The notes beneath the pieces are model-generated. The model was not told the DNA's origin. It worked only from the letters and a program-made list of their open reading frames with translations, and did no database searches. Positions 2,073 to 23,645 of a DNA stretch of 64,000 bases are shown piece after piece. This DNA comes from Chloroflexota bacterium (GTDB lineage Bacteria > Chloroflexota > Limnocylindria > Limnocylindrales > CSP1-4). The position numbers and the translations under genes were made by a program. Location of the stretch: positions 62,001-126,000 of the forward strand of contig JADMIG010000004.1 of assembly GCA_015478725.1 (NCBI GenBank). The letters are read 5' to 3'. Positions within the stretch are counted from its first letter, which is position 1. Each line of letters begins with the position of its first letter.

Positions 2073-2406
2073 ATCCTGCCATCCGCTCTCCAGGAGGGCA
2101 CTCGTCGGCGGAACGCTGCCATATGAGCCGTCGCTCGATCAACTGTCACGATCGATGGCGGTCCCCACGCTCGGAGGACCTGATGGCACGCCACCGATCG
2201 CGGACCAGTGCGCGCCTGACGCACATCTGACAGGAACGGCGGTCAGCGGCAGGAATGGCGGTCAGCGGCGCCCCCGCAGTACGCGGGCCGCCTCCGTGGC
2301 CGCACTGCGTCCGCACCTCGCCACAGCGCCACGGCCGCACCGCGGCCGCACCTGCCCACACGCGCCCACGGCACGCTGCGGCCACGCGAGTGGTACGGTG
2401 ACGGCG

Positions 2407-3806: not shown

Positions 3807-3810
<4 letters not shown>
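2407..3810 (+). CDS. GT-A fold glycosyltransferase, mannosylglycerate-synthase-like, in a GpgS operon
   Basis: This 467-residue cytoplasmic glycosyltransferase starts at ATG 2407. An N-terminal nucleotide-binding segment (VGIPSFKNAATIG, then NADAGSPDGT) is followed by GGKGAALRTIFEIA, the metal-binding DSD (VVVDSDLRS), a QPIGGDFG motif and FGIDIWMTT. The order DxD, QPxGG, GID and a later His resembles GT78 mannosylglycerate synthases, and the neighbour is a glucosyl-3-phosphoglycerate synthase. A role in adding a sugar to glycerate or glucosylglycerate to make a compatible solute is therefore likely but inferred. The C-terminal ~130 residues are helical and end in a Glu/Gln-rich, possibly coiled region. 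The stop overlaps the next start by ATGA (3807-3810). Confidence 0.75.
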
Positions 3811-7671
<3,861 letters not shown>

Positions 7672-7733
7672 GCCACCCGCGCGCCGATCCTCGCGCTGGC
7701 GCCGCGAAACGAACCGCGCCGCGGCGACGTCCC

Positions 7734-8510: not shown

Positions 8511-8699
8511 ACGGCCGCCGCTCACGATCTGCGCCCCTGCACCGCCGACCTGCCCTCGTCGTTCCCCCCACCGCCGTGCCCACCAGGCGTTCGACCCTCC
8601 GCCTCCGCCGCCGCGCCCGCCGCGCCGTCCGTCGCCCGCCATGTCCGCCGTCGCGCCACGTCCGAACCGCGGCCGCGAGCCGCTCCTATACTCCGAGCC

Positions 8700-9446: not shown

Positions 9447-9468
9447 GCCGGCCAGGGTCGAAGGCCGG

Positions 9469-11034
9469 ATGATCCCCGGCGACACCCCCACGGATCGCAT
9501 CGACACCCTCGGGGATCGGCTCGACGCCCTCGACGATCGCATCGACGCCCTCGACACCCTGGAGGATCGGTCCGAGCGGATCGGCTCGCGGCTCGCGCTC
9601 CGGACCCGGCTGACCATCGCCCTCATCGGTGCCTCGGTCCTCCCGCTGGCGATCTTCGGCCTGTTCCTCGTGGTGGCTTCGCGGTTGCCGGACCCGGTCT
9701 CGACGATCCCGCGCCTCCTCCTCCTCGCCGTCGTGTTCGCGGCGCTCATCGCCGTCCTCGCCTCGTACCTCCTCGCGACCGGTCTCACCGCCCCCCTCCG
9801 GGCGATCGCATCCGCCGTGGACCGGGTCAAGTCCGGCGATCTCTCGACTCGCATCGTCGTCGAGGGCGACGACGAGCTCGCCCGCCTCGCGGAGAGCCAC
9901 AACCTCCTCACCGCAGCGCTCGAGCGGCGGAACCGTGAGCTCGGGCGGATCCTCGCCGGCATCGTCCACGGCTCGCCCAGGGCGGGCGTCGACTGGCTCG
10001 TCGGTTCGGCCTCCAACGATGCCCGGGAGGCCTTCGGCCTCATCGACGCGGAGATCCACCTCGTCGATCCGGCGACCGTGCCGGTCGAGGAGCGCGTGCC
10101 CGCCGATCCGCTGCCGGTCCGCGCGGAGCTTCGAGCGGGCGACGAGAAGCTCGGTGTCCTCGTCGGCCACCTGCCGGCGACGCGGACCTGGGAACGGGCC
10201 GACCAGGATCTCCTCGAGGTGTTCGCCGCCGAGGTGGGCGCCTCCCTGCGGAACGCCGAGCTGTTCGCCCGCGTCGAAGCCCAGAACGTCCAGCTCCTCG
10301 AGCTCGATGCGGCGAAGGACGACTTCCTCCGGGGCGTGAGTCACAACCTCCAGACACCGCTCACGAGCATCCGGGCCTACGCCGATCAGCTCGCCGCCAA
10401 GAACCCGGATCGGCGCCTGGAGATCATCGGCGAGCAGGCCGATCGACTCTCGCGGATGGTCCGCCAGCTCCTCACCGTGACCCGCCTCGACTCCGGAGCA
10501 CTGCGGCCGCAGGTGGAGGTGGTGGCGCTCGGGTCCCGAGTCCGGCGGGCCTGGGAGGCGCTCGCCGCGGACGACGTGCCGTTCACCATCGACGATCGAA
10601 GTGATGGATGGCTCGCGGTGACGGACGTCGATCAGCTCGACCAGGTCCTCTGGGCGCTCCTCGACAACGCCGTGAAGTATGGCGCGCGGGGACCGGTTCA
10701 GGTCGAGCTCGACCTGGAGCCCGCCGCGGGCGACGCACCGCTCGACCCGGGCTCGCCAGGGGCGCGCCCGGGCATCGGAGTGGTCGAGGGTCGGCTCCGC
10801 CTGACGATCGCCGACCACGGGCCGGGCGTGGCGGAGGCGGACCGCCGGCGCCTGTTCGCCCGCTTCGTGCGCGGCAACTCCCAGCAGGCGGAGGACGGCA
10901 GCGGCCTCGGCCTCTACGTCTCCCGCGAACTGTGTCGCGCCATGGCGGGCGACCTCGTTCTCGAGCCTGCGGTCCCCGGCCGCGGCGCGGCGTTCAGCAT
11001 CTGGCTCCCCGCTGAATCGGGCCACGAGGGATAG
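9469..11034 (+). CDS. Sensor histidine kinase (2 TM, HAMP, HisKA, HATPase)
   Basis: The order is: a cytoplasmic N-terminus with an Asp/Leu heptad-like stretch (~residues 7-35), two transmembrane helices (about 45-70 and 78-105) joined by a loop of only about ten residues, a HAMP segment (APLRAIASAVDRVKSGDL), a GAF-like middle region, HisKA with His292 in SHNLQTPLTS, and an ATPase domain with N box (LWALLDNAVKYGA), G1 (IADHGPGV), F (RLFARF) and G2 (GSGLGLYVS). With almost no extracellular loop it probably senses membrane or cytoplasmic signals. The residue after His is Asn rather than the usual Glu/Asp. It pairs with the response regulator upstream. Confidence 0.92.
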   Translation: MIPGDTPTDRIDTLGDRLDALDDRIDALDTLEDRSERIGSRLALRTRLTIALIGASVLPLAIFGLFLVVASRLPDPVSTIPRLLLLAVVFAALIAVLASYLLATGLTAPLRAIASAVDRVKSGDLSTRIVVEGDDELARLAESHNLLTAALERRNRELGRILAGIVHGSPRAGVDWLVGSASNDAREAFGLIDAEIHLVDPATVPVEERVPADPLPVRAELRAGDEKLGVLVGHLPATRTWERADQDLLEVFAAEVGASLRNAELFARVEAQNVQLLELDAAKDDFLRGVSHNLQTPLTSIRAYADQLAAKNPDRRLEIIGEQADRLSRMVRQLLTVTRLDSGALRPQVEVVALGSRVRRAWEALAADDVPFTIDDRSDGWLAVTDVDQLDQVLWALLDNAVKYGARGPVQVELDLEPAAGDAPLDPGSPGARPGIGVVEGRLRLTIADHGPGVAEADRRRLFARFVRGNSQQAEDGSGLGLYVSRELCRAMAGDLVLEPAVPGRGAAFSIWLPAESGHEG

Positions 11035-11042
11035 GGCCCTCG
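11025..11042. terminator. Short hairpin between convergent genes
   Basis: CGAGGG at 11025-11030 pairs with CCCTCG at 11037-11042 around a 6-nt loop, overlapping the TAG of the histidine kinase and facing the convergent nitrilase gene. There is no U-tract, so terminator function is only a possibility. Confidence 0.3.
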
Positions 11043-11067
11043 CATCGTCTCCGTTCGCGAGGCGACG

Positions 11068-11883
11068 TCAGCGATACGCCTCCGGCCGGCGGTTCGCGAG
11101 GACGGGGATCTGTCGGCGGACCGACGCGACGCGATCCGTGTCGAGCTGCGCGGTGACGATGCCGACGCGGTCCGGTGCCTGGGCGACGATCGTGCCCCAC
11201 GGGTCCACGACCATCGTCCGGCCGTAGGCGGGCGCTCCCGGCGGACCGTTGATCTGCGCAGGCGCGAGAACGTACGCGCCGTTCTCGATCGCACGAGCCC
11301 GGAGGAGGACCTCCCAATGGTCGCGGCCGGTCCGCTCGGTGAAGTTCGCCGGGACAGTGAAGACCTCGGCGCCGGCCAGTGCGAGCGTCCGGTAGAGCTC
11401 CGGGAAGCGAACGTCATAACAGATCGTGAGACCGAGTCTCACACCGTCGACGTCGGCAGTCACCACCCGGTCGCCGGGGCTCACCCGGGAAGACTCGGTG
11501 TCGACGGGCCCCGCCTCCACCGCGACATCGAACAGGTGGACCTTGCGATACGTCGCGGCGATCGAACCGTCCGGCGCGATGAGGACGCTCGTGTTGTACG
11601 GGCGATCCGGATCCGCACTCGTCTCGGCGAGCGATCCGACGAGGATCCAGCAGCCTCGACTCCGCGCGACCTCGGTGAATGGCGCAGTGAACGGGCCTGG
11701 GACCGGACGGGCCGAAGCGCGAAAGCCCGCATCCGGGCCGCGGAACTGGAGGTACTCCGGCAGCGCGACGAGCTGCGCGCCGCCGGCTGCGGCTTCGTTC
11801 GTGAGCGCGGCGGCGGTCGCGACGTTCGTGTCGGCCTCGGCGCCGGCATCGAGCTGGACCAGGGCGACGCGAAGGCGGGTCAT
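11068..11883 (-). CDS. Carbon-nitrogen hydrolase (nitrilase superfamily, Nit/omega-amidase-like)
   Basis: The 271-residue enzyme has the Glu-Lys-Cys triad in order: Glu in VALPEYLQF, Lys in YRKVHLFD and Cys in LTICYDVRFPELYR, followed by VPANFTERTGRDHWEVLLRARAIEN. The YDVRFPELYR context is characteristic of Nit1/Nit2-like amidases, which hydrolyse omega-amides or deaminated glutathione, so a cytoplasmic amidase role in metabolite repair is likely. ATG 11883 (MTRLRVALVQLD) is chosen because family members begin there. An ATG at 11901 would add six residues. Confidence 0.9.
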   Translation of the reverse strand: MTRLRVALVQLDAGAEADTNVATAAALTNEAAAGGAQLVALPEYLQFRGPDAGFRASARPVPGPFTAPFTEVARSRGCWILVGSLAETSADPDRPYNTSVLIAPDGSIAATYRKVHLFDVAVEAGPVDTESSRVSPGDRVVTADVDGVRLGLTICYDVRFPELYRTLALAGAEVFTVPANFTERTGRDHWEVLLRARAIENGAYVLAPAQINGPPGAPAYGRTMVVDPWGTIVAQAPDRVGIVTAQLDTDRVASVRRQIPVLANRRPEAYR

Positions 11884-11900
11884 GCGCGGAGGATGCCACA

Positions 11901-11972
11901 TCGCGTCGGCCGGTCATCGCGGGGGGCGAAGGGCCGTCGCGTCGGCCGGTCATCGCGGGGGCGAAAGGGCGT
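11901..11972. repeat. Two-copy ~36-bp direct repeat
   Basis: Two near-identical ~36-bp units (starting about 11901 and 11937, sharing GTCGGCCGGTCATCGCGGGG) lie upstream of the nitrilase gene start. They differ by a base or two in a G-run. Function unknown. Confidence 0.75.
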
Positions 11973-12024
11973 CGTCGCCATCGACTTCGGGGCATAGGGG
12001 TCGATGTGTGCCCCCGGCAGACCT

Positions 12025-12474
12025 TCAGCGGATGCCGGTGTCGTAGCGCACGTCAAGCGCCGACGCAGCCCCGGCCGCGGCGACGGAGAACGCGAGTGGA
12101 CGAGGCGTGATCATGAGCCCGGCCACGGGCTGCGGCACGAGGAGATAGTCGCCCGGCGCGAGCGAGAGGCTGAACGCTCCACCCGCGTCGCTCGTGACCC
12201 TGGCGATCTCAGTGCCGGACGGCGTCGTCACTACGAGGACCGCACCGGCGACCGGCCGATCCGCACACCCCGAGTCGCCGACGCGTTGCACCGGACACGT
12301 CGGTCCGGCGAGGACCGTCCCCGGGACCGTGCGGCCACCGGCGATCGATCCGCCCGCCCCGGGGCCTACGGTGCACGCGCCGACGACCAGGGCGAGTGCG
12401 ACGGCTATGAAGGCGACTACCGCGGCACGCGATCGAAGGTCCACCCCGATCTGGCGACGACTCAGTTCCCGCAT
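12025..12474 (-). CDS. Lipoprotein with carboxypeptidase-regulatory-like (Ig-fold) domain
   Basis: From ATG 12474 (149 residues) there is a basic N-terminus, a hydrophobic helix (AAVVAFIAVALALVV) and a lipobox (VVGAC), so the protein should be an exported, lipid-anchored lipoprotein. After a Gly-rich linker, the segment PVAGAVLVVTTPSGTEIARVTSDAGGAFSLSLAPGDYLLVP has the pattern of carboxypeptidase-D regulatory/CarboxypepD_reg-like beta sandwiches. Two cysteines (ACT..., CPVQR...GCAD) precede it. No enzymatic domain is seen and the function is unknown. It lies just downstream of the MazF-like gene on the same strand. Confidence 0.7.
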   Translation of the reverse strand: MRELSRRQIGVDLRSRAAVVAFIAVALALVVGACTVGPGAGGSIAGGRTVPGTVLAGPTCPVQRVGDSGCADRPVAGAVLVVTTPSGTEIARVTSDAGGAFSLSLAPGDYLLVPQPVAGLMITPRPLAFSVAAAGAASALDVRYDTGIR

Positions 12475-12532
12475 CGTGGCGCCGAGACGTCGAGCGACGG
12501 TCACTGGTTCCCGTTCGGTGAGGTGAACGCCG

Positions 12533-12883
12533 TCACAGGGCAAGATGCAGGCGCAGCGCTTCGTCGATGTCGATCATGATCGCGTTGGGAACGGCACCCA
12601 GCCGGTCACCCACCCGCTCGACGGCGATCGATCTGACCTGCTCCGCCTGCGCCTTGGAGTCGTCGGCGAGCCCTGTCTCCGCGGCTGGAAGCAGAACCTG
12701 GAACGGGTAGACCCGTTCGCCATTCGACGTCACGGGAACAACGGTGATGACGCCGCGACCCAGCCGTTCGGCCGTCGCGTTGGCTGCGTCGTTGCTGACG
12801 ATGACCGCCGGCCGCCGCTTGTTCGCCTCGGAGCCGCGGGCGGGATCGAGGTCCACGGAATGGATGGAGCCGCGGCGCATCAT
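12533..12883 (-). CDS. mazF: MazF/PemK-family endoribonuclease toxin
   Basis: The 116-residue protein has the MazF fold markers: RRGSIHSVDLDPARGSEANKRRPAVIVSND, with the Arg and Pro-Ala-Val-Ile strand, then ITVVPVTSN with the conserved Thr/Ser, and AEQVRSIAVERVG. MazF toxins are sequence-specific mRNA interferases. ATG 12883 overlaps the antitoxin stop (ATGA), a typical mazEF arrangement; ATG 12880 is also possible. Confidence 0.93.
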   Translation of the reverse strand: MMRRGSIHSVDLDPARGSEANKRRPAVIVSNDAANATAERLGRGVITVVPVTSNGERVYPFQVLLPAAETGLADDSKAQAEQVRSIAVERVGDRLGAVPNAIMIDIDEALRLHLAL

Positions 12884-13101
12884 GACCCAAGTCCGTCGCC
12901 GGTGGTCGTCTCCCAGAGGCTGGCCCCGCCCTCAACTGCCCACTCCTCCCACGCCCCTTCGTAGGAGCCGCTCAGTTCTGCCGTGCGAAGGAGGCGCACG
13001 GCTCGATGGACGGCGGCCGATCGAGATTCAAGCCCCTGTTCCTTCGCGTATTCGTCGAGGAAGTGGACGTCCTCGCCGGGCAGGCTCACACTGACCTTCA
13101 T
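12880..13101 (-). CDS. mazE: Ribbon-helix-helix MazE-type antitoxin
   Basis: The 73-residue protein begins MKVSVSLPGEDVHFLDEYAKEQGLESRSAAVHRAVRLL, a ribbon-helix-helix DNA-binding domain. An acidic, Trp-containing tail (YEGAWEEWAVEGG) suits toxin neutralisation. It is coupled to the MazF-like gene by a 4-bp overlap. The promoter immediately upstream contains a perfect inverted repeat (13111-13134), which fits negative autoregulation by an RHH dimer. Confidence 0.9.
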   Translation of the reverse strand: MKVSVSLPGEDVHFLDEYAKEQGLESRSAAVHRAVRLLRTAELSGSYEGAWEEWAVEGGASLWETTTGDGLGS

Positions 13102-13107
13102 ACGACG

Positions 13108-13137
13108 ATACTACCCGAGGTAGGACTCGGGTAGCAA
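13108..13137 (-). promoter_or_regulatory. mazEF promoter with embedded perfect palindrome, leaderless start
   Basis: On the minus strand, -35 TTGCTA (13137-13132) and -10 TAGTAT (13113-13108) are separated by 18 bp. The interval holds a perfect inverted repeat, CTACCCGAG at 13111-13119 and CTCGGGTAG at 13126-13134, with a 6-nt spacer. The predicted +1 falls at or next to the ATG (13101), so the mRNA would be leaderless. The palindrome is the expected site for the RHH antitoxin. Confidence 0.6.
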
Positions 13138-13220
13138 TGGGCGTGGCCCACCGCTGACGCCGTCTTCGCAGAGCGACCGTGTACTGGGCCGGCAATGCGA
13201 ACCCACCACCGGGCGCCGCC

Positions 13221-13475
13221 TCAGTACACCTGGTCGTGAGAGCCAAGGTTGACGAGGAACGCGTCGTCGCCGGCCCAGCGGAACAGGACGCGGAGGTCGT
13301 CGTCAACGCTGAACGCCCAGTAGGCGTCGAGGTCGCCCTTCAGCTTGTGCGTTCGAAGAAGCGGATCCTTCGGGTCGGCTGCCAAACGGCGGAGTGCGGC
13401 ACGCAGCATCGACGCCTGCGGTTCTCGGAGCTTCCTGGCCGTTCGAAGGAAGCGACTGGAGGCCGTGAGCCGCAA
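13221..13475 (-). CDS. RelE/ParE-superfamily toxin (YafQ/YoeB-like)
   Basis: An 84-residue basic protein with a RelE-fold pattern: RFLRTARKL, then LLRTHKLKGDLDAYWAFSVDDDLRVLFRWAGDDAFLVNLGSHDQVY. The conserved Lys/Arg and aromatic positions and the C-terminal strand (LVNLGSHDQVY) match ribosome-dependent mRNA interferases. The start is TTG 13475, one base after the antitoxin stop; a weak start following a coupled antitoxin is common in TA pairs. Confidence 0.85.
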   Translation of the reverse strand: MRLTASSRFLRTARKLREPQASMLRAALRRLAADPKDPLLRTHKLKGDLDAYWAFSVDDDLRVLFRWAGDDAFLVNLGSHDQVY

Positions 13476-13476
13476 G

Positions 13477-13752
13477 TCAGCTCCGTAGCTCGTTGAGCAG
13501 CTGCTCGACGTCGTCGAAACGTGACGCCTCGCCGGCCTGATGCTCAGCCTCTGCCTCGCGGACCTCGGCCAGGAAGATCGTCCGGCGAAGCGCGCTCAAT
13601 TCGGCTTGATCACGTTCATATCGCTCGGGGTTCACGATGTACGCCGCTTTCCGCGAGCGCTGCAGGACGACCGTCGGCTCCTCGGTCGACTGGACGTCGT
13701 CGATGACGTCGGCCACCCGCTTCCGCAGATCGCTGATCGGAATGCTCTTCAT
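13477..13752 (-). CDS. Phd/YefM-family antitoxin
   Basis: The 91-residue protein starts MKSIPISDLRKRVADVIDDVQSTEEPTVVLQRSRKAAYIV, the YefM/Phd DNA-binding domain, and ends in a charged helical tail (EAEHQAGEASRFDDVEQLLNEL) that should bind the toxin. It lies one base upstream of the RelE-like toxin. A strong promoter with an inverted repeat immediately upstream fits autoregulation. Confidence 0.9.
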   Translation of the reverse strand: MKSIPISDLRKRVADVIDDVQSTEEPTVVLQRSRKAAYIVNPERYERDQAELSALRRTIFLAEVREAEAEHQAGEASRFDDVEQLLNELRS

Positions 13753-13756
13753 GACA

Positions 13757-13790
13757 CGGACAAGTGTACGGTCCGATGTACTCCTGTCAA
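13757..13790 (-). promoter_or_regulatory. Promoter of the Phd/RelE-like pair, with operator
   Basis: A perfect -35 (TTGACA, 13790-13785) and a -10 TACACT (13768-13763) are separated by 16 bp on the minus strand. An inverted repeat CGGAC (13757-13761) and GTCCG (13771-13775) with a 9-nt spacer overlaps the -10. The predicted +1 near 13756 is about four bases from the ATG (13752), so the transcript is essentially leaderless. Confidence 0.7.
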
Positions 13791-13832
13791 TGCGATCATC
13801 GTCTGTTCGGCTGCGGGCCAGCGCGCAAACCG

Positions 13833-13859
13833 TTGCTGCCGGACCTCATCGCCTATACT
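13833..13859 (+). promoter_or_regulatory. Probable tRNA promoter
   Basis: A clear -10 TATACT (13854-13859) lies ten bases before the tRNA 5' end. A TTGCTG -35-like element (13833-13838) has a short 15-bp spacing. Confidence 0.5.
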
Positions 13860-13868
13860 CGCGCCCGC

Positions 13869-13943
13869 GCCGACATAGCTCAGCGGTAGAGCAGCTGTTT
13901 CGTAAACAGCAGGTCCTCGGTTCAAATCCGAGTGTCGGCTCCA
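13869..13943 (+). tRNA. tRNA-Thr (anticodon CGT), CCA encoded
   Basis: A cloverleaf is readable: acceptor stem GCCGACA/TGTCGGC, D-loop AGCTCAGCGGTAGAGC, anticodon stem GCTGT/ACAGC with loop TTCGTAA (anticodon CGT, reading ACG threonine codons), T-arm TCGGTTCAAATCCGA, discriminator T and a genomic CCA. Its 3' part from the anticodon loop onward is duplicated exactly at 58071-58118, marking it as an integration site. Confidence 0.95.
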
Positions 13944-13945
13944 CC
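13898..13945 (+). repeat. Left attachment site (attL), inside tRNA-Thr
   Basis: This 48-bp block runs from the anticodon loop through the CCA plus two flanking bases and is identical to 58071-58118. Similarity continues for another ~13 bp with scattered mismatches (shared TTTCACGC, then CGAA). Confidence 0.85.
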
Positions 13946-14053
13946 CTTTCACGCGCGAATTGCCCCACGGCTTGGTCGAGCTCGCAACGCGTCGGAATCG
14001 GCTTGAGTTATGCGGATCGCCTTTGCGAGGATCCCGTCGGTTGACTTGAGGTC

Positions 14054-14554
14054 TCAGGTCAACCGCGGTGGCGCGTCGGTGGGCGCGAGAAAGGCGAGCT
14101 GATAGTCGACGGGTGGAATGACGATCCGAAGGCCGCCGACGTCGGCCGACCCGTTCAAGCGCACCAGGTCCGTCTGGTCGTACGTGTACAGGGTCTCGGA
14201 TCCCGTCACGAGGGCCGTCGCGAGGATCATGGCGTCCGGTGTCTTCAGCCACCGGACATGCCGGCGCAGGTCACGAGCTCGCGCGGCGACGACCGGATCA
14301 ACGGAGACGAGCGTGATGAACGGGTTGTCCATGTAATCGACGAGGACGCTCTCCTGCTCGTCCGTCAGCAGCGGATCGCCTGCCGCCGGGCCCTTCACCG
14401 TCTCGGTGATCGTGACCGTAGAGACGAACACCTTGATCTCGCCGCGCTCGGCCTGCTCGAGCAACCGAAGGACGTGTTCGGCGCGGTCCACCTCCTTAGC
14501 CAGGAGCGCGATCCACGGGCTCGTGTCGATGGTGACCACGGGCTTGTCAGGCAT
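14054..14554 (-). CDS. PIN-domain protein (VapC-like nuclease)
   Basis: The 166-residue PIN protein has VVTIDTSPWIALL (first Asp), VSTVTITETVKGP (Glu), TPDAMILATALVTGSETLYTYDQTDLVRL (later Asp residues). It is probably a Mg-dependent RNase. ATG 14554 is used; it overlaps the end of the upstream 269-residue gene by eight bases, so the two are co-translated. The partner is not a recognisable antitoxin. This is the first gene inside the left att site. Confidence 0.85.
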   Translation of the reverse strand: MPDKPVVTIDTSPWIALLAKEVDRAEHVLRLLEQAERGEIKVFVSTVTITETVKGPAAGDPLLTDEQESVLVDYMDNPFITLVSVDPVVAARARDLRRHVRWLKTPDAMILATALVTGSETLYTYDQTDLVRLNGSADVGGLRIVIPPVDYQLAFLAPTDAPPRLT

Positions 14555-15356
14555 CGCGAATCCGACGCACCCAGACCTCAGACGGCACCCCGCCCGTGAG
14601 ATTGGGGGCAAGGCCGAGCAGCGCCGCGGCACGCGGACGCTGGCGGTCGTGCCGGAGCACCTGGATGGACCGCACCTGAACCCGCTCCGGGCGGCCCAGT
14701 CGGTCGAACGTTACGAGCCCGTGGACGCGCACCCGCTCTTGCACGCCAGCCTTCACGTCGTCCCACATGGAGGCGGGGAAGTCGCACCGGACGCGGTGAC
14801 CGTACAGCGTGTCCCAGATCGCGAAGCTCGGCTGCTTCTTGTCGTGGCCGAACACGTCCTCAAGCGGCCCCTCGACGGTGCTCATGGCGGTCTGGGTCCC
14901 GATCTCGACGGGGGCCGTCGTCAACGCCTCGTCCTCGTCAGACAGCTGCACTGCGCTCGTGAGGACGACCGACTGCTCCTCAGCGTCGATGGACACTCGG
15001 CTGATGCCGTCGTGCAGCACGCGGACGATGGCTCTGTAGTCAGACCAGGCGGTGTCGGAGATCCCCTCGGGCCGCTCGCCCTGATCGCGGACCGTTGTCA
15101 TACCTGTGGCGAACTGACTGACCACGTACGCACTGCGATCGTAGAGCGGGTTGATTGGGGCCGCCTCGAGCCCGACCTGCGCGCTGCCAACTTCGAGGTT
15201 CCGGATCACCCACCGCATGGTCGGCTGGCCGGTAGTCGCCGCGTCAAGCTCAGCGAGGATACTCGCGAAGTGGCCGACCATCTCCGCGAAGGCATCGAAC
15301 GGTACGGGCTCGCGAGGGTCCTGCGTTTCGACCTTGAACGTGAACTTGGTTGGCAT
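14547..15356 (-). CDS. Uncharacterised 269-residue protein coupled to a PIN nuclease
   Basis: I do not recognise this family. The sequence is soluble, with mixed alpha/beta character and no signal or membrane segment. It opens with a strand (KFTFKVETQDP), then an amphipathic helix (FAEMVGHFASILAELDAA) and later a beta-rich region ending in RVQVRSIQVL. ATG 15356 has a good ribosome site (GGGAG, 7-nt spacing). It overlaps the PIN gene and may be its antitoxin-like or sensor partner. A near-perfect 19-bp palindrome stands ~35 bp upstream of its start. Confidence 0.75.
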   Translation of the reverse strand: MPTKFTFKVETQDPREPVPFDAFAEMVGHFASILAELDAATTGQPTMRWVIRNLEVGSAQVGLEAAPINPLYDRSAYVVSQFATGMTTVRDQGERPEGISDTAWSDYRAIVRVLHDGISRVSIDAEEQSVVLTSAVQLSDEDEALTTAPVEIGTQTAMSTVEGPLEDVFGHDKKQPSFAIWDTLYGHRVRCDFPASMWDDVKAGVQERVRVHGLVTFDRLGRPERVQVRSIQVLRHDRQRPRAAALLGLAPNLTGGVPSEVWVRRIRDA

Positions 15357-15390
15357 CGGCGGACTCCCATGCCGAGGTTCGCGCGGGCTC

Positions 15391-15409
15391 GTGTCACCTT
15401 AGGCGACAC
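15391..15409. promoter_or_regulatory. 19-bp near-perfect palindrome upstream of the PIN operon
   Basis: GTGTCaCCT-T-AGGcGACAC reads as an inverted repeat with one mismatched pair around a central T. It lies between the divergent PIN operon (start 15356) and the defence methylase gene (start 15611), positioned as an operator. The remainder of the 254-bp gap shows no other structure to me. Confidence 0.5.
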
Positions 15410-15610
15410 GTACGCGAGAGTACACGCCGCCGGTCGACACGTGGATCCGACGGCGGCACCCCGTCCCAATTGCCGAGGACGCGGGCGCCGCGCGCGCCGG
15501 CCGGGTGATGTCGGGCCGTACAATCCGATCCAGGTTGTCACCTGAGGGGGCGTGGGCGTGGAGGCACGTGGCTGCGCGCTCGTGGCACCGCCAAGCCGGG
15601 AGTTCCAACA

Positions 15611-18600
15611 GTGGCGCCGGAGAACGATCCGTTCGCGACCCTTCGCGCGCCACGCGCTGCGATCCCGTGGGATCGGCCGGCTCAGTCACCGCGAGACGCC
15701 ACGACGGAGCGGGTCTGGATCGGCGCCGATCCCCACGGGCTGGGCTTCGAGGTAGCCGTCGCGTCATGGTCGGGCGCCAACCCGCCGACTCAGGAGGCGA
15801 TGCGAACCCTCCACGCCGCCCGGCTCCGCAACCGGGCGATCCCGCTGACCGTCGTGGCGCGACGTGTCGGTGGACATGCCTGGCTCTTTGGGCCACTGGC
15901 GAACGCGCCTGTACTTGGTCCGCTGCCGGCAAGGCACGCTGCCCGGATCGTTCAGGCGGCACTCGACGAACCCACAGCGGGGGCCGCGCGCGCCCGGATC
16001 ATCCAGGCTCGCGACGCCCTCGAGACGGCCGACATCCCGGGGTTCGACTCCCAGGGCCTGTTCGCGATCCGCGAGCTGACATGGGGCGTCCCGCGACGGC
16101 CTGACTGGGGGGCCGCCTCGGCGCGGAGCCGCGCGCTCATGGCGACGAGCCCGCGCGGTGCGGCGCTGGTGCAGGGACTCGGGTTCGACAGCCGCACGAT
16201 CCCCGGCAACGCGCTGCTGCTGAGCGTCCACGGGGAACCGCCGCGCGCGGTCGCGATCCTTCTCCGGGACGACGAGTCGTTCGACGCCGAGAGTGCGCGA
16301 TTCGCGAAGTCGCCCATCTACCATGGCCTCGAGATCGCCCGCCAGAACAACGTTCGCTGGCTCGTCGTCGCTCGGGGGCCGCAGCTCCGGCTCTACCCGA
16401 CGGCGCCCGACATCGGCGTCGGTCGGCGCGGGGCGACGCAGACGTACTTCGGCCTCGACCTCGCCCTCCTCGACGACCAGCACGCCGGGTATCTCGAGCT
16501 CGCGTTTGGCGCCGCGGCCCTGGCACCCGGCGGGTCAGTCGACCAACTCCTCGATGCCAGCCGCGACTACGCGGTGTCGCTCGGCGAGCGCCTCCGCGAA
16601 CGGATCTACGACAGGGTAGTCGACTCCTTGTCGACCGCGATCGCCCGCGCGCTCGCGACCGACGCTCGTCTTGACGACCAGCGGCTCGCCCTCGCCTACC
16701 GCCTCACCCTGCGGATCCTCTTCCGGCTCCTCTTCCAGGCGTACGCCGAGGACACCCGGCTCCTCCCTCTCCATCGCAACGAGCGATACACGCGGGCCTC
16801 GCTCAAGGAGCTGGCCCGCGACCTCGCCGCCCATCCCGACCGGCCAAACGACCCGCGCAGCACCTCGCTCTGGGACGGCCTCGCCCAGGTCTGGCGCGTC
16901 ATCGACACCGGCGACGAAGCATGGGGTGTCCCGGCCTACAACGGCGGCCTCTTCGGCGCCGATCCCGAGCTCCATCCCGACGGCGCCGCGGTCGCGCGAC
17001 TTGTCCTCCACAATGACGCCGTCGGCCCGGCGCTGGCCGGCCTACTCGTCGACGTGGCGGTGGATGGTGACCGCGGCCCCGTCGACTTCCGCTCCCTCGA
17101 TGTCCGTGACTTCGGCACGATCTACGAGGGGCTCCTCGAGTCGGGTCTCTCGCTCGCAACCGAAGACCTCGCAATCGACGCATCGGGCGCATGGCGACCG
17201 GCGAGGGCAGGCGAGCGGATCGACGCGGCCACAGGCGCACCGTATTTCCACACGAAGTCGGGCGACCGCAAAGCGACCGGCTCGTACTTCACGAAGCCCT
17301 TCGCGGTCGAGCACTTGCTCGGGCGCGCGCTCGATCCGGCGCTCGACGCTCACCTGGAGAAGGTCGCCGTGCTCGTCGGGCGGGGCGATCAGGTCGGCGC
17401 GGCACGACTCTTCTTCGACTTCCGCGTCGCCGATCTCGCGATGGGCAGCGGCCACTTCCTCGTGGGCGCGATCGGGCACATCGAGGGGAAGTTCGGTGCG
17501 TTCCTCGAGCGCAACGCGATCCCGGGGGTGGAACGGGAGCTCCTCGAACTTCGCGACGCCGCTCTCGCCGCCCTTCGGCGGGTTGGCGTCGAGGAGCCGG
17601 AGATCGACCGCTCCGCGCTGCTTGGCCGGCAGATCGCCCGCCGCTGTGTTTATGGCCTCGACATCAACGACATCGCCGTCGAACTGGCGCGCCTCGCGAT
17701 CTGGGTCCGGACGTTCGTGCCGGGCCTGCCGATGTCGAGCCTCGACCACCAGCTCGTCTGCGGCAACTCGCTCACCGGCATCGGCACTATCGAGGAGGCG
17801 ATCGAGGCGCTCGATCCCGATGCCCGGACGGGCGCGATGACCTTCTCCGGGGCCGCGATCCGGGCTGCCCTTGACCAGGCGCGGGTCGTGCTGGAGGATG
17901 CCGCCGCGCTCAAGGAGTCGACGAGCGACGAGGCGCGCGCCGCCCAGGAGGCGTCACGCCGCGCGCTCGAGGCGGCCGAGCCGGCGCGCCTGCTCTTCGA
18001 TGCGGCGGTCGCCGTGCGACTCGGGGTGCTGCCGGCCCCGGCCGACTTCGATGCCGAGGGGATCGCCCGGAGTGCTGCCGCCGCCCGGGTACGGGACTCG
18101 CTGCGCGACCTCGACCCGGTCCACTTTCCGGTGCGGTTCCCGGAGGTGTTCTTGCGGGAACCGAGCGGCTTCGATGTGCTCGTTGGCAATCCTCCCTGGG
18201 AGAAGGTGAAGGTCGAGGCCGACAAGTGGTGGGGTGCGCGCATTCCTGGCCTGTTCCATCTTCCGGTCGGCGCCCGCGATGCTGCTATCGAACGGGCCAA
18301 GGGCGACCGGTCCGACCTTGCCCAGCAGTTCGCGGCCGAGATCTCGCAGAACGACGGTCTGCGTGACGCGTTGAGACTCGGCCCATATCCGGGCCTTGGT
18401 ACCGGCGACATCGACCTCTATCAGGCATTTGCCTGGCGCAACTGGCACCTCGTGTGCTCCGGTGGTCGAATCGGAATGGTCGCCCCACGGAGTCTCGTTG
18501 CAGAGGCCGGTGCTGCCGACTGGCGCGAGCTTGTCTTCGACGACGGCGAGTTCGACGAAGTGACACTCCTCCTGAACACAGCGCGCTGGGCGTTTGACAT

Positions 18601-19672
18601 GGAAGCGCGCTACAGCATCGCTCTCGTATCCCTTCGGAGACTGGGACAGGCGGGCGGCCAGGTCACCCTTCGGGGACCCTTCGCGTCGCGCGCTGAGTTT
18701 GAAGCTGGCGCACATCGGGCTCCTGCGCGGTTCCCAGCAGCTGAGTTCAGAACGTGGGGAACGGGGGCCTCTTTTCCGATCCTTTCCACCGCGGAAGACG
18801 GCGGGGTGTACGTTCAGATGCGGTCTCATCCACGGCTCGATGCGGACATCGGCGACTGGCGCGTTCGCGCCTACGCCGAGTTCCATGCGACCGCGGACAA
18901 GCCGCTATTCCACTTGGATACTGTCCCGTCGGGATGGTGGCCGCTCTATAAAGGCGAGTCGTTCGACCTGTGGAATCCCGACACGGGCCGGTACTACGGC
19001 GGGGTCGATCCGGAGGTCGTGTTGCCCGTGCTGCTCGAGAAGCGCCGACGAGCCGGCAGGCTGGCCGCCTCTCCCTTCTCAGAGTTCCCGCCTGCCGTCA
19101 TCGACGACGACTCAACACTCCCCATCCGCGGGGCGCGGATCGCGGTTCGCCTGGTCGCGCGATCGACCGACACGCGTACCGTCCGCGCGGCCCTCGTGCC
19201 GCCGCGCGTCGCGCTGACTCATGGCGCCCCATATCTGCTCTTTCCACGTGGCAACCCGGAGGCCGTTGCGTATCTCCTGGCCGTTCTCAGCTCGATCCCG
19301 CTGGACTGGATGGCCCGTCGCGCCGTTGAGATGAACCTCACCTATCACGTCATGTACGGGTTCGCGATCCCGCGACCAGCGCCAGGTGACTCCCTCCGCC
19401 AGCGAGCGGTGGTCATCGCCGGTCGCCTCGCCGCGATCGACGCCCGCTTCTCAATCTGGGCCGCTGCCGTTGGCGTGCCGGTCGGATCGGTGGGCGACAC
19501 CGACCGCCCGGATCTCATCGCCGAGCTCGACGCCGTCACCTCGCACCTCTACGGTCTCTCGCGCGAGCAGGTCGAACACGTATTCGCAACGTTCCACCGC
19601 GGCTGGGACTACGCTCCCCGCCTGGCTCGCGTCCTCGCCCACTATGACCGCTGGGCGGCAGCTGGCCGATGA
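15611..19672 (+). CDS. Large Eco57I/PglX-type N6-adenine DNA methyltransferase (defence)
   Basis: This 1353-residue class I adenine methylase starts at GTG 15611 with GGGAG eight bases upstream. It has an N-terminal ~500-residue region of restriction-subunit type (LTLRILFRLLFQAYAED, FGTIYEGLLE), the GSYFT motif (residues 557-561), SAM-binding motif DLAMGSGHF (608-616), VYGLDINDIAVELARLAIW, and the catalytic NPPW (860-863). The C-terminal part is a probable target-recognition region. Such proteins (type IIG, BREX PglX, DISARM DrmMI) methylate host DNA for self-recognition. The helicase gene overlaps its stop by ATGA, so they are one system. The exact class cannot be fixed from two genes. Confidence 0.88.
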   Translation: MAPENDPFATLRAPRAAIPWDRPAQSPRDATTERVWIGADPHGLGFEVAVASWSGANPPTQEAMRTLHAARLRNRAIPLTVVARRVGGHAWLFGPLANAPVLGPLPARHAARIVQAALDEPTAGAARARIIQARDALETADIPGFDSQGLFAIRELTWGVPRRPDWGAASARSRALMATSPRGAALVQGLGFDSRTIPGNALLLSVHGEPPRAVAILLRDDESFDAESARFAKSPIYHGLEIARQNNVRWLVVARGPQLRLYPTAPDIGVGRRGATQTYFGLDLALLDDQHAGYLELAFGAAALAPGGSVDQLLDASRDYAVSLGERLRERIYDRVVDSLSTAIARALATDARLDDQRLALAYRLTLRILFRLLFQAYAEDTRLLPLHRNERYTRASLKELARDLAAHPDRPNDPRSTSLWDGLAQVWRVIDTGDEAWGVPAYNGGLFGADPELHPDGAAVARLVLHNDAVGPALAGLLVDVAVDGDRGPVDFRSLDVRDFGTIYEGLLESGLSLATEDLAIDASGAWRPARAGERIDAATGAPYFHTKSGDRKATGSYFTKPFAVEHLLGRALDPALDAHLEKVAVLVGRGDQVGAARLFFDFRVADLAMGSGHFLVGAIGHIEGKFGAFLERNAIPGVERELLELRDAALAALRRVGVEEPEIDRSALLGRQIARRCVYGLDINDIAVELARLAIWVRTFVPGLPMSSLDHQLVCGNSLTGIGTIEEAIEALDPDARTGAMTFSGAAIRAALDQARVVLEDAAALKESTSDEARAAQEASRRALEAAEPARLLFDAAVAVRLGVLPAPADFDAEGIARSAAAARVRDSLRDLDPVHFPVRFPEVFLREPSGFDVLVGNPPWEKVKVEADKWWGARIPGLFHLPVGARDAAIERAKGDRSDLAQQFAAEISQNDGLRDALRLGPYPGLGTGDIDLYQAFAWRNWHLVCSGGRIGMVAPRSLVAEAGAADWRELVFDDGEFDEVTLLLNTARWAFDMEARYSIALVSLRRLGQAGGQVTLRGPFASRAEFEAGAHRAPARFPAAEFRTWGTGASFPILSTAEDGGVYVQMRSHPRLDADIGDWRVRAYAEFHATADKPLFHLDTVPSGWWPLYKGESFDLWNPDTGRYYGGVDPEVVLPVLLEKRRRAGRLAASPFSEFPPAVIDDDSTLPIRGARIAVRLVARSTDTRTVRAALVPPRVALTHGAPYLLFPRGNPEAVAYLLAVLSSIPLDWMARRAVEMNLTYHVMYGFAIPRPAPGDSLRQRAVVIAGRLAAIDARFSIWAAAVGVPVGSVGDTDRPDLIAELDAVTSHLYGLSREQVEHVFATFHRGWDYAPRLARVLAHYDRWAAAGR

Positions 19673-22600
19673 TCAACCGCCCGTTTCCTCCGGTCTTCGC
19701 GACGAACCGTCTCGATCGGGGCGAGAGCGTCGCGGACGAGATCAACCGGCTCTTGCGCGGCCTGCGCGAACAGCTCGCGGTCGCGCCGACGGTCGCGATC
19801 GCGACCGCCTACCTCAACGCTCAGGGCTTCGAGCTGCTCGCGGACGAGCTTGAGCGGGCGCCTCGCGTCCGGCTGATGATCGGGGCCGAGCCACAGCAAC
19901 CGGAAGAGCGCCTCTTCGCCCGGCGCCCGACCGACGAGGAGCTGCTCGAGAAGGCGATCGCAGACCACGAGGCGGGCCTGCGTGACGAACGCGACCTCGC
20001 CGGGTTCACCGTCGCGCGGGATGCCGCCGAGCGTCGCATCGTCGCCTGGCTGCGCATGACCGACGCGACGGGCACGCCGCGGGTCGAGGTCCGGCGCTAC
20101 ACAAAGGGCTTCCTCCACGGCAAGGCCTACATCCCCGAGAACGACCTCGCGGGCATCCTGGCTGGCTCGTCGAACCTGACCTACGCCGGGCTGCGCCTCA
20201 ACAAAGAGCTCAATCTCGGCTACGAGACCGGCACCCACAAGCGCCTCGTCCGCGACTGGTTCGAGGAGCTCTGGGCGGATGCCGAGCCCTACGACCTCGC
20301 GGCGATGTACGAGGCCCGGTTCCTGCTCCACGACCCGTGGGTCGTGTTCCTCCGGATGCTTGTCACGATGTACGGGTACCCCGGCGACGACGATGCGGGA
20401 TACGAGCCCGTCCTGCGGCTGACCGGTTTCCAGCGCGATGGAGTCGCCCGCATCCGGCGCATCGTCGACAAGTGGGGCGGGGTCCTTGTCGCCGACGAGG
20501 TCGGGCTCGGCAAGACGTTCCTCGCCGGCGAGCTCATCGCGGAGGCAACGAAGCGCGATCGCCAGCGTGCGCTCGTCATCGTCCCGGCTGCCCTCAAGGA
20601 GTCCACCTGGAAGCCATTTCTGGACACATGGGACCTGACCTCGGCCCGCGTCCGGGTGATGAGCTACGACGAACTGCGCCTCGCGAGCGGCGACGACCTC
20701 GAACGGCTCGACGAGTACGCGCTGGTCGTGATCGACGAGGCGCACAACCTGCGAAACCCCGCCACCGCCAGGGCAGACGTGGTCCGCAAGCTTCTCTCGG
20801 GCGCATATCCCAAGCAGCTCGTCCTCATGACCGCGACCCCGGTCAACAACTCGCTCCTGGACCTGCACACGCTCGTCGGTTACTTCGTCAAGAACGACGC
20901 GGCGTTCGCGAGCCGCGGGATCCCGAGCCTGTTCCGGTACATCCGGGAGGCGCAGGCCCAGGACCCGGAGACGCTTTCGCCGGCGCACCTGTTCGCACTT
21001 CTCGACGAGGTTGCCGTCCGGCGAACTCGGGGCTTCGTCAAGCGCCACTACGCGGGCTCGACGATCCGCAACCCGGCCGGCCGCGACGTCCCGATCGAGT
21101 TCCCGACCCCGCGCGTCGAGCGCATCGACTATGAGCTCGACGCCGCCGGCCACGAGCTCCTCGACGCGGTGATCACCGCCCTCGAGCCCACCGACACCGA
21201 CGCGGAGAAGTGGCGGCCCGGACAGGCGCCGATGCCCGGCCGCCTCACGATGGCCCGCTACATGCCGAGCCGCTACGCGATCACGGATAAGGTCGAGGCC
21301 GTTCAGGTGGTGAATGCGGGCTTCCTCCGGTCCGCGTTGCTAAAGCGGCTCGAGTCGAGACCACGTGCCTTGGCGAACACGCTGGGCGTCCTCATAGACA
21401 ACCACCTGGACTTCTTGAGCGGGCTCGCGAACGGCAAGGTCCTGCGCGGGAAGGCGCTGACGGCATGGGGCGAAGCCGAAGACGACACCTCGATCGAGGA
21501 AGTGCTCGCCGCCCTCGAGGAAGACGGCGCTGAATCCATCAGCGAGCTGAGCGATTACCACGCAGCAGAGCTTCGCGCGGACGTCGAGGCGGACTTGCTC
21601 CTCATCCGCGAACTCAAGGCGATCGCCGAGCGTGTCGCGACCGGGCGCGACCCGAAGGCCGACAAGCTGCTGGCCAAGCTCTCGGAGATCGCCGAGGCGG
21701 CAAGCCGTCCGTCCCGCGACGGAGACCTGTCGGAGGCCGACCGCCGGAAGGTCATCGTGTTCTCCGCGTTCGCGGATACGATCGAGGACCTCCACCGCCG
21801 CGTGAAGGACACCGTTGAGCGCGCTCCTGCGGGGTCACCGCTCGCGGCGTACAAGGACCGGATCCCGGAGCCGGTCCGCGGCCGGAAGCAGGGCATCGAC
21901 CAGACGTCCCGGGCACGCATCCTCGCGGGCTTCGCTCCCGCGACGGCGGGGCCGCTCACGGCCGCGGGCGTTCCAACCGCGATCGACCGCTACGACATCC
22001 TGCTCACCACGGACGTCCTGTCGGAGGGCGTGAACCTCCAGCAGGCCGGGCGCATCCTCAACTACGACCTGCCCTGGAATCCGATGCGGCTGGTGCAGCG
22101 ACACGGCCGGATCGACCGGATCGGCAGCCGTCATCGCGAGGTCCACCTCGGGTGCTTCTTCCCGGCGACCAACCTCGACGAGCTGCTCGGGCTCGAGGAG
22201 ACGATCCAGCGGAAGATCGCCTACGCCGCCGTCTCGATCGGCATCGGTGACGTCATTCCGGGCCAGCGCGCGAAGCGGATCGAGGTCGTCCTGGCCGACA
22301 ACCGCGAGCAGATCGAGAAACTCCGCGAAGAGCGACCCGAGCTGTTCGAGTCCGGAGGCGATTCCGCCGCGTTGTCCGGGGAGGAGTACCGGCGGCGGCT
22401 GGCGATCGCGCTCGAGGACGGGCTTATCCGCAGCAGGGTCGAGGACCTGCCGATGGCCTCCGGCACCGGCTTCCGGTCGACGCTGGCAACGGAGCACGGC
22501 TGGGTGTTCGCCACCGAGGTGGGTCCCGATCGAGAGGCGCGGTTTGCGTTCGTGGCGGCAACGGCGTTCTGGGGCGTCCGGCGTGACAGCGCCGGCGCCG

Positions 22601-23091
22601 CTGAGGTCGACGAGAGCCCGCTGCGATGCCTCAGTGACGCCGATCCGGGCGACCGATCGACCTACGCCGAACTTCCGGCACCCGCGTATGACGGAGTGTT
22701 CGATGCCTGGCCGGAGGCGCGCGCGGCCATCTGGCGCTCGTGGATGCGCCTGACCGATCCCGCGAACCTCCAGCCCGACGTCCGCGGCGTTCTGCGGCGC
22801 GCGGCCGACCTCGTTCGAGACGGCACGTCGGGCCTCAGCATGAACGAGCGAACCCGTGTCGCCGTCGCCCTGGCCCAGCGGTGGCCGCTCCGCATCTCGA
22901 GAGAGGTCGGGTGGATCCTCGAGGACGAGCACGCCCCGATCGCCTCGCGCATCGAGACTCTCCGGGCGCTCGTCGACGCCGAGGGTCTCCAGGCGCCTCC
23001 GCCGCCCACGCCGCTCCCGCTCATCACCGAGGACGACATCCGGCTGGCAGCATGGATGGCGATCATCCCGGCCCGAGATAGCCGGAGATGA
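19669..23091 (+). CDS. PLD-nuclease / SNF2-family helicase fusion (defence)
   Basis: The 1140-residue protein has an N-terminal phospholipase-D-like domain with H150-x-K152 (FLHGKAYI) and GSSN (166-169). A superfamily 2 SNF2/HepA-type helicase follows: Walker A DEVGLGKT (276-283), DEAH (356-359), motif III TATPVNN, and C-terminal motifs TDVLSEGVNLQQ and QRHGRIDRIGS. The architecture suggests DNA translocation coupled to a single HKD-like nuclease site, like the helicases of DISARM (DrmD) and related phage-defence systems; DISARM uses a separate PLD protein (DrmC). It is co-translated with the methylase upstream. A broken ubiquitin-like gene begins 27 bp after its stop. Confidence 0.88.
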   Translation: MINRPFPPVFATNRLDRGESVADEINRLLRGLREQLAVAPTVAIATAYLNAQGFELLADELERAPRVRLMIGAEPQQPEERLFARRPTDEELLEKAIADHEAGLRDERDLAGFTVARDAAERRIVAWLRMTDATGTPRVEVRRYTKGFLHGKAYIPENDLAGILAGSSNLTYAGLRLNKELNLGYETGTHKRLVRDWFEELWADAEPYDLAAMYEARFLLHDPWVVFLRMLVTMYGYPGDDDAGYEPVLRLTGFQRDGVARIRRIVDKWGGVLVADEVGLGKTFLAGELIAEATKRDRQRALVIVPAALKESTWKPFLDTWDLTSARVRVMSYDELRLASGDDLERLDEYALVVIDEAHNLRNPATARADVVRKLLSGAYPKQLVLMTATPVNNSLLDLHTLVGYFVKNDAAFASRGIPSLFRYIREAQAQDPETLSPAHLFALLDEVAVRRTRGFVKRHYAGSTIRNPAGRDVPIEFPTPRVERIDYELDAAGHELLDAVITALEPTDTDAEKWRPGQAPMPGRLTMARYMPSRYAITDKVEAVQVVNAGFLRSALLKRLESRPRALANTLGVLIDNHLDFLSGLANGKVLRGKALTAWGEAEDDTSIEEVLAALEEDGAESISELSDYHAAELRADVEADLLLIRELKAIAERVATGRDPKADKLLAKLSEIAEAASRPSRDGDLSEADRRKVIVFSAFADTIEDLHRRVKDTVERAPAGSPLAAYKDRIPEPVRGRKQGIDQTSRARILAGFAPATAGPLTAAGVPTAIDRYDILLTTDVLSEGVNLQQAGRILNYDLPWNPMRLVQRHGRIDRIGSRHREVHLGCFFPATNLDELLGLEETIQRKIAYAAVSIGIGDVIPGQRAKRIEVVLADNREQIEKLREERPELFESGGDSAALSGEEYRRRLAIALEDGLIRSRVEDLPMASGTGFRSTLATEHGWVFATEVGPDREARFAFVAATAFWGVRRDSAGAAEVDESPLRCLSDADPGDRSTYAELPAPAYDGVFDAWPEARAAIWRSWMRLTDPANLQPDVRGVLRRAADLVRDGTSGLSMNERTRVAVALAQRWPLRISREVGWILEDEHAPIASRIETLRALVDAEGLQAPPPPTPLPLITEDDIRLAAWMAIIPARDSRR

Positions 23092-23118
23092 GGACACGCG
23101 TAAGATTAGGAGCAGGAC

Positions 23119-23274
23119 ATGAACGACACCGAGCACGGTAAGAGCGGCGAGCAGCATCCGACCGAGATCCCGATCACGATCGACAAGAAGCCGTACAAGG
23201 CTCCTAAGCGGCTGATGACTTCTAGGTGGTCGGCGAGCATGGCCAACCTCTCGCGGGTCTCGGGGTACGGGTAG
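23119..23274 (+). pseudogene. Truncated prokaryotic ubiquitin-like (multiubiquitin-type) gene
   Basis: ATG 23119 has a strong ribosome site (AGGAG, 6-8 bases upstream) and opens a 51-codon frame. Residues 17-34 (IPITIDKKPYKAPKRLMT) match the start of the bacterial multiubiquitin/ubiquitin-like fold, where families continue with T-G-x-E-L; here homology stops at Thr34. The remaining 17 residues are antisense of a luciferase-like monooxygenase gene and end at TAG 23272-23274. In other genomes such genes precede E1/E2-like conjugation enzymes; none is present here. It follows the helicase gene by 27 bp and was probably part of the same operon before truncation. Confidence 0.6.
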
Positions 23275-23645
23275 CCGAAGGAGACGTACTCGTCGCGCTT
23301 CCATCCGGCGCCGATTCCAAGATCAATCCGACCCCCGCTGATCACGTCCATCGTGCTGATCATCTTGGCCGTGAGGGCCGGATTTCGATACGCCGTGCAG
23401 GTCACGATCTGGCCCAGCCGGACGCGCGTGGTGACCGAAGTGAGTGCACCGAGGGACGAGAAGCACTCGAAGGTGATCTCGTTGGTCGGCTCTGGCACGG
23501 TTGTGAAGTGATCGAACATCCAGATCGATTCGAAGCCGAGTTGCTCGGCCTGTTTGGCGACCTCGACCGTTTGTTGCCATGCCGAGGCGGGTGGCCAGCC
23601 GTCGTATTTGCCGGTCCAGCCCTGCGGCACGATGACCCCAAAAAG
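23212..23645 (-). pseudogene. Truncated LLM-class (luciferase-like) flavin oxidoreductase
   Basis: The minus-strand frame encodes only the N-terminal half of an F420/FMN-dependent LLM oxidoreductase: VIVPQGWTGKYDGW, LGFESIWMFDHF, VRLGQIVTCTAYRNPALTAKM, DLGIGAGWKRDEYVSFGYPYP and MLADHLEVISR. Homology then ends at the junction with the ubiquitin-like fragment (about 23205-23222). No ATG is visible at the 5' end, where an in-frame TGA precedes LFGVIVPQGW; only GTG 23630 is available. The full-length paralog at 51740-52636 shows what is missing (~150 residues). The 200 bp beyond it (23646-23841) hold nothing I recognise. Confidence 0.8.

What the first reader, a model, noticed from the sequence alone, without database searches (positions are those of the whole stretch)
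15611..23274. Candidate defence operon: adenine methylase, PLD-SNF2 helicase and a ubiquitin-like gene
Seen: a 1353-residue adenine methylase and an 1140-residue PLD/SNF2 helicase overlap by 4 bp, and 27 bp later a gene with a strong ribosome site begins with a ubiquitin-like N-terminus. Known: methylase plus SNF2 helicase plus PLD nuclease are the ingredients of DISARM-type systems, and bacterial ubiquitin-like proteins occur with E1/E2-like enzymes in other anti-phage systems. Inference: the intact ancestor may have joined both, a methylation-guided nuclease-helicase with protein conjugation. That combination, with PLD and helicase in one chain, is not one I know as a named system.
Basis: partly seen in the sequence, partly recalled or inferred. 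Interest (0 to 1): 0.82.

Follow-up and report, generated by a model that had tools for sequence, protein, structure and literature searches.

The report
Two-gene restriction module, ubiquitin-gene stub
The region holds an intact, widespread but unnamed two-gene bacterial DNA-defence module (a DNA-marking enzyme plus a DNA-cutting motor), followed by the broken first few codons of what was probably a neighbouring ubiquitin-like gene that is not part of the module.

Summary
The two large genes are real, intact and translationally coupled (ATGA overlap). They are a conserved pair found in over 30 genomes of many bacterial phyla and haloarchaea, and on six plasmids: an Eco57I-like adenine methylase that carries the sequence specificity, plus an HKD(PLD)-SNF2 nuclease-motor. 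It is not DISARM (no drmA or drmB homologue in the window or near relatives) and not a DUF499/BREX-related system. In close relatives the methylase recognition half is swapped while the helicase stays 95-98% identical, and in seven relatives the methylase gene, and nothing around it, carries phase-variation repeats. Both point to restriction-modification in which the methylase supplies specificity.

The 'ubiquitin-like gene' is a stub: about 29-30 codons resemble a Multi_ubiq N-terminus (P about 1e-4), then the sequence runs into an antisense luciferase-like gene fragment. None of 33 genomes with the pair has a ubiquitin-like gene beside it, so the proposed fused system is not supported as a conserved unit. 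However, ubiquitin-like (Bub-type) operons sit beside restriction-type genes in 6 of 18 loci inspected; one lies inside a DISARM locus, between drmMI and drmA. The stub is best read as the remnant of such a neighbour.

The parts
15611..19672 (+). Adenine-specific DNA methylase with target-recognition half (1353 aa, GTG start): apparently inactive nuclease-like N-terminal domain, MTase core (DLAMGSGHFLV about 608-618, NPPW 860-863), C-terminal recognition region about 870-1250
19669..23091 (+). HKD(PLD) nuclease - SNF2 translocase (1140 aa): H150xK152...G166S167xN169, Walker A (about 276-283), DEAH 356-359, QRHGRIDR 810-817
23119..23207 (+). Stub of a probable Multi_ubiq-type ubiquitin-like gene (codons 1-29/30), preceded by an AGGAG motif; open frame continues as chimera to 23271
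23208..23640 (-). Truncated luciferase-like monooxygenase (Bac_luciferase) fragment, joined tail-on to the ubiquitin-like stub; rearrangement junction about 23207/23208

Best explanation
A two-gene, ATP-dependent restriction-modification module. The methylase reads a short DNA sequence through its C-terminal recognition region and methylates adenine to mark self DNA. The HKD-SNF2 protein, which seems to take its specificity from the methylase, moves along DNA bearing unmethylated sites using ATP and cuts it with its PLD-type active site. The ubiquitin-like codons downstream are the remnant of an adjacent, modular Bub-type (ubiquitin-like conjugation) operon whose remainder was lost by a rearrangement joining it to an unrelated luciferase-like gene fragment. 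Shown: gene structure, families, motif conservation, pair conservation, recognition-region swap, repeat tracts, junction in the assembly. Inferred: methylation specificity, complex formation, translocation, cleavage, anti-phage role, and that the stub was once part of a complete operon.
For: (1) The adjacent pair is found in most of about 35 related loci (bacteria and haloarchaea) and on six plasmids, often with a 4-19 bp overlap. No third family recurs. (2) HKD, Walker A, DEAH, QRxGRxxR and methylase motifs I/IV are invariant in 28 and 17 sequences; the nuclease-like N-terminal region of the methylase has no conserved acid-x-lysine signature, so the HKD domain is the likely nuclease. (3) L005 versus L006: helicase 95-98% and methylase N-part/core 94-97% identical, recognition region 32%, C-terminus 22%; L032 versus L008: helicase 84-92%, recognition region 51%. 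(4) Seven relatives carry perfect non-triplet repeats of at least 24 nt inside the methylase gene, against none in 468 kb around. (5) Foldseek places the motor with RapA and lists the PLD-type restriction enzyme SauUSI (7clg). (6) Stub statistics and junction.
Against: No activity data. PADLOC labels the methylase family a self-contained Type IIG enzyme. Cleavage might be absent, as in BREX-like exclusion. The ubiquitin assignment rests on about 20 aligned residues. A chimeric MAG contig at about 23207 cannot be excluded.
Confidence: 0.72

Rival explanations
1. A single integrated system: methylation-guided nuclease-helicase plus ubiquitin-like conjugation, of which this is a broken copy.
For: Ubiquitin-like ATG 27 bp downstream on the same strand with a ribosome-site motif; elsewhere a Multi_ubiq/ThiF/DUF6527 operon sits inside a DISARM locus (L191) and others adjoin SNF2, DUF499 or R-M genes.
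Against: 0 of 33 genomes with the pair have Multi_ubiq beside it; no E1, E2, DUF6527 homologues in the flanks; 0 of 38 in the phylum sample. Six plasmid copies have none annotated.
Confidence: 0.08
2. A degraded DISARM class 1 locus (drmD + drmMI left).
For: Secondary matches to DrmMI (195 bits) and DrmD (117 bits PADLOC, 141 bits NCBIfam).
Against: NCBIfam DrmD cut-off is 610 bits; best methylase model is PDLC03620 (798 bits); no DrmA/DrmB homologue in the window or near 36 related loci; helicase carries a fused HKD domain; the pair itself is conserved as two genes.
Confidence: 0.05
3. The methylase is a complete Type IIG restriction enzyme and the HKD-SNF2 protein is an accessory (for example modification-dependent, SauUSI-like) nuclease.
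For: Full-length PADLOC Type IIG hit; weak fold matches to BpuSI and DrdV; SauUSI among helicase fold matches.
Against: No conserved acid-x-lysine nuclease signature in the methylase N-terminal domain across 17 orthologues; near-universal pairing and gene overlap; fold matches not significant (E 0.05).
Confidence: 0.15
4. The stub and junction are an assembly artefact of the MAG, so the true downstream neighbour is unknown.
For: Two unrelated truncated genes abut at about 23207; single MAG, no reads available.
Against: No near-identical luciferase copy elsewhere in the genome that would mislead an assembler (best 70%); base composition is continuous.
Confidence: 0.2

Closest known systems
Type-2 DUF499-centred BREX-related (BR/Hma-like) systems (PMC12839542)
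   Same: N6-adenine methylase plus N-terminal HKD nuclease fused to SNF2 helicase, proposed R-M-like action
   Different: No DUF499 ATPase within 10 kb of the pair in any of the related genomes examined and no recurring third gene; DUF3780 not searched specifically. This genome has a separate DUF499 + SNF2 locus on contig C29
DISARM class 1
   Same: drmMI-like methylase and drmD-like SNF2 helicase; a separate PLD protein drmC is known in DISARM
   Different: drmA and drmB absent; PLD fused to helicase; scores far below family cut-off
PADLOC C3a139 'HKD+Snf2' and REase_MTase_IIG PDLC03620
   Same: Family labels matched by the two proteins (144 and 798 bits)
   Different: Separate family models; the tool output does not present them as one two-gene system
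Type I/III/ISP ATP-dependent restriction enzymes; SauUSI
   Same: Motor-nuclease plus methylase/specificity logic; PLD-type nuclease in SauUSI
   Different: Different motor family arrangement; two large polypeptides with the recognition region inside the methylase
Bub-type ubiquitin-like operons (PMC13373217)
   Same: Stub resembles the first gene (Multi_ubiq); such operons are reported next to R-M systems
   Different: Only about 30 codons remain here; no E1, E2 or DUF6527

Membership tests
DISARM | drmA helicase and drmB (DUF1998) present | tested here: not met
   No DrmA/DrmB homologue in window ORFs or flanks of L004-L039
DISARM | DrmD and DrmMI at family cut-off | tested here: not met
   DrmD 141 bits against NCBIfam cut-off 610; methylase best model is not DrmMI
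DUF499 BREX-related Type-2 | DUF499 AAA+ ATPase in the locus | tested here: not met
   PF04465 found in 16 of 34 genomes but never within 10 kb of the pair among the loci held
DUF499 BREX-related Type-2 | DUF3780 protein | not tested
   Not searched specifically; no recurring third gene family seen
DUF499 BREX-related Type-2 | HKD nuclease fused N-terminal to SNF2 helicase | tested here: met
   PLDc_2 42-202, SNF2 326-453, Helicase_C 773-819; HKD residues invariant
Type IIG restriction enzyme | Active PD-(D/E)XK nuclease in the methylase chain | tested here: inconclusive
   No conserved acid-x-K in 17 orthologues; nuclease-like fold match weak, E 0.05
ATP-dependent R-M (general) | Specificity exchange in the recognition region with conserved motor | tested here: met
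   L005/L006 and L032/L008 comparison
ATP-dependent R-M (general) | Methylation and methylation-sensitive cleavage | not testable with these tools
   Needs biochemistry or methylation sequencing
Bub/ubiquitin-like conjugation operon | Multi_ubiq protein | tested here: inconclusive
   9.6 bits for 30 clean residues, 2 of 20,000 shuffles as good; no Pfam hit
Bub/ubiquitin-like conjugation operon | E1 (ThiF) with E2 or DUF6527 downstream | tested here: not met
   None in the window

The most novel reading that the evidence does not exclude
Bub-type ubiquitin-like conjugation operons are recurrent functional partners of methylase-SNF2 restriction systems (DISARM, BREX-related, this HKD-SNF2 module), for example tagging or switching the restriction machinery; the window holds a broken example and L191 an intact one nested inside DISARM.
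Probability: 0.13. Interest if true: 0.82.

Novelty: new variant of a known kind. Interest (0 to 1): 0.5.

Why it matters
A compact two-gene methylase + HKD-SNF2 module, spread across bacteria and haloarchaea and annotated as 'hypothetical protein' and 'helicase-related protein' on plasmids, would be a small, clonable ATP-dependent restriction system whose specificity is carried by one exchangeable region. In several relatives that region looks phase-variable. The DISARM locus with a nested ubiquitin-like operon makes the question of whether bacterial ubiquitin-like conjugation cooperates with restriction directly testable.

Tried and rejected
Pfam, PADLOC and NCBIfam scans of the 51-aa ORF: no hit. 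BLASTP of the stub against a Multi_ubiq protein: no alignment. tblastn of the stub against plasmids: none. phmmer against PDB gave only LC3-type ubiquitin folds at E about 1, not counted as evidence. DISARM and DUF499/BR membership rejected. Attempt to find the empty site or luciferase neighbour in relatives: the only close permease homologue lies near a contig end without a recognisable luciferase gene, uninformative. Literature searches found no paper describing this pair or a DISARM-ubiquitin nest in the held library.
Full report
Observation. The window (part of a contig of a 3.4 Mb, 151-contig genome assembly, about 70% GC) contains a 1353-aa GTG-start ORF at 15611-19672 and a 1140-aa ORF at 19669-23091 with an ATGA overlap; 27 bp later, after an AGGAG motif, an ATG opens at 23119. 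Pfam finds Eco57I methylase in the first and PLDc_2, SNF2 and Helicase_C in the second. Motifs are intact: NPPW and DLAMGSGHFLV in the methylase; HxK...GSxN, GLGKT, DEAH and QRHGRIDR in the helicase. So the pair is not a ruin; only the third gene is.

The third gene. The open frame has 51 codons. Downstream of about 23207 the sequence is the antisense of a truncated luciferase-like monooxygenase (PF00296, 105.8 bits, profile 16-137 of 314). Full-length homologues in the same genome continue ...GDQLEVVTRM... and ...GDHLAIISRM..., matching ...ADHLEVISR... here, so the residues read as RLMTS in the ubiquitin frame are luciferase sequence. The remaining MNDTEHGKSGEQHPTEIPITIDKKPYKAPK scores 9.6 bits with a Multi_ubiq HMM built from 15 members, most from the window's phylum; 2 of 20,000 shuffles do as well and no non-ubiquitin ORF start among about 10,000 exceeds 6.6 bits. 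I take it as a probable, not proven, ubiquitin-like start.

Distribution of the pair. The search for related loci gave about 35 relatives of the helicase, most full-length at 37-52% identity, in Actinomycetota, Acidimicrobiia, Chloroflexota, Gemmatimonadota, Planctomycetota, Thermoanaerobaculia, Rhodothermales and haloarchaea. The methylase homologue lies directly upstream in most, often overlapping by 4-19 bp. Six plasmids carry the same arrangement, annotated 'hypothetical protein' + 'helicase-related protein' or 'helicase, SNF2 family'. The own genome has a second, 42% identical pair (L084). All-against-all comparison of neighbours finds no recurring third gene.

Test of the ubiquitin link. 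PF14452 was sought in the 33 genomes that carry the pair: 2 have it, neither within 10 kb of the pair. In a 400-genome phylum sample, 38 genomes have the helicase (many only as more distant relatives) and 14 have Multi_ubiq; none has both on one contig. No E1, E2, DUF6527, DrmA or DrmB homologue is found in the flanks of L004-L039.

Precedents found on the way. Of 18 Multi_ubiq loci read, six have R-M-type neighbours within about 10 kb: L191 (complete drmD-drmMI and drmA-drmB with an M78 peptidase, Multi_ubiq, DUF6791-ThiF and DUF6527 operon between drmMI and drmA), L196 (DrmD-like SNF2 at the contig edge), L192 (DUF499/HmaC), L198 (Type I R-M), L193 (large Type I/IIG-like enzyme) and L194 (Type II methylase). 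A paper reports capK-capS genes immediately downstream of a predicted R-M system in 88 of 443 cases and suggests they coordinate it with a downstream immune operon such as CBASS or Bub (PMC13373217). Co-location is thus real but modular, and could be ordinary defence-island clustering; no background control was run.

Mechanism. Close relatives L005 and L006 share 95-98% identity across the helicase and 94-97% across the methylase N-part and core, but only 32% and 22% in the recognition and C-terminal regions; L032/L008 show the same trend. A helicase that stays constant while the methylase recognition part is exchanged implies that specificity comes from the methylase. The methylase N-terminal part is modelled well (residues 1-690, pLDDT 84.9) with only weak similarity to Type IIG and Holliday-resolvase nuclease folds (E at best 0.05), and no acid-x-lysine signature is conserved, so the HKD domain of the partner is the likely nuclease. 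The helicase model (pLDDT 81) matches RapA best and also lists SauUSI, a PLD-type ATP-dependent restriction enzyme.

Phase variation in relatives. Seven of 28 methylase genes carry perfect tandem repeats of non-triplet unit at least 24 nt long (CAGC x25 and x17, CCGAC x19, TC x28, CAGCACC x5, GTCC x7, GATACTC x4), against none in 468 kb of flanks that include the helicases. In L007, L015, L017, L018 and L028 they lie at one site, aligned to residues about 1076-1089 of the window protein; in L007, L017, L018 and L028 the frame is broken there. Four loci have 65-bp tandem units in the recognition region. The window copy has none. This is inference from assemblies, not shown switching.

Comparison with known systems. 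HKD fused to SNF2 with an N6-methylase is described for Type-2 DUF499 BREX-related systems (PMC12839542), but DUF499 is not near this pair. DISARM fails on drmA/drmB and on score. PADLOC files the two proteins under Type IIG (798 bits) and 'C3a139 HKD+Snf2' (144 bits) as separate families. I therefore call it a new variant of a known kind: a minimal two-gene ATP-dependent R-M module, with a stub of a neighbouring Bub-type operon.

Context. The module sits just downstream of tRNA-Thr (13869-13943) inside an att-bounded region: the 46-bp tRNA end recurs at 58070-58115 next to a tyrosine integrase and terminase, and again at contig position 154468.

Noticed in passing
L191 (G220:C53:28000-47000), 2025-18458: DISARM class 1 locus (drmD, drmMI, drmA, drmB) with a Multi_ubiq - DUF6791/ThiF - DUF6527 operon plus an M78 peptidase gene inserted between drmMI and drmA.
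   Followed up: partly
L007:8555-8584; L010:220-258; L015:7285-7384; L017:8352-8396; L018:6723-6790; L022:5726-5781; L028:8825-8923: Perfect non-triplet repeats inside the methylase gene, five of them at one homologous site in the recognition region and none in flanking DNA: likely phase-variable specificity; 65-bp tandem units in L010, L012, L014, L022.
   Followed up: partly
window 13897-13942 and 58070-58115; G000:C4:154468-154514: tRNA-Thr 3' end repeated as att-like sites bounding tandem islands; tyrosine integrase 52908-54110, terminase-like 54176-55645, ParB-methylase 56366-57766.
   Followed up: partly
G000:C7:115493-115696 (L097): The same genome has an intact Multi_ubiq gene followed by a small E2-like gene and a ThiF E1 gene, far from this pair.
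   Followed up: partly
L085 (G000:C29), 5931-9458 and DUF499 match near 15593-16753: Separate SNF2-NOV_C helicase plus DUF499 ATPase, probably a BREX-related (Hma-like) system in the same genome.
   Followed up: partly
window 14054-14632 (-) and 14547-15356 (-): PIN-domain protein and an overlapping unknown gene between tRNA-Thr and the methylase; possible toxin-antitoxin pair.
   Followed up: no
L222:10285-11133 (Euzebya pacifica plasmid): A phosphorothioated-DNA-binding restriction endonuclease gene overlaps the helicase gene by 4 bp, another accessory neighbour of the pair.
   Followed up: no
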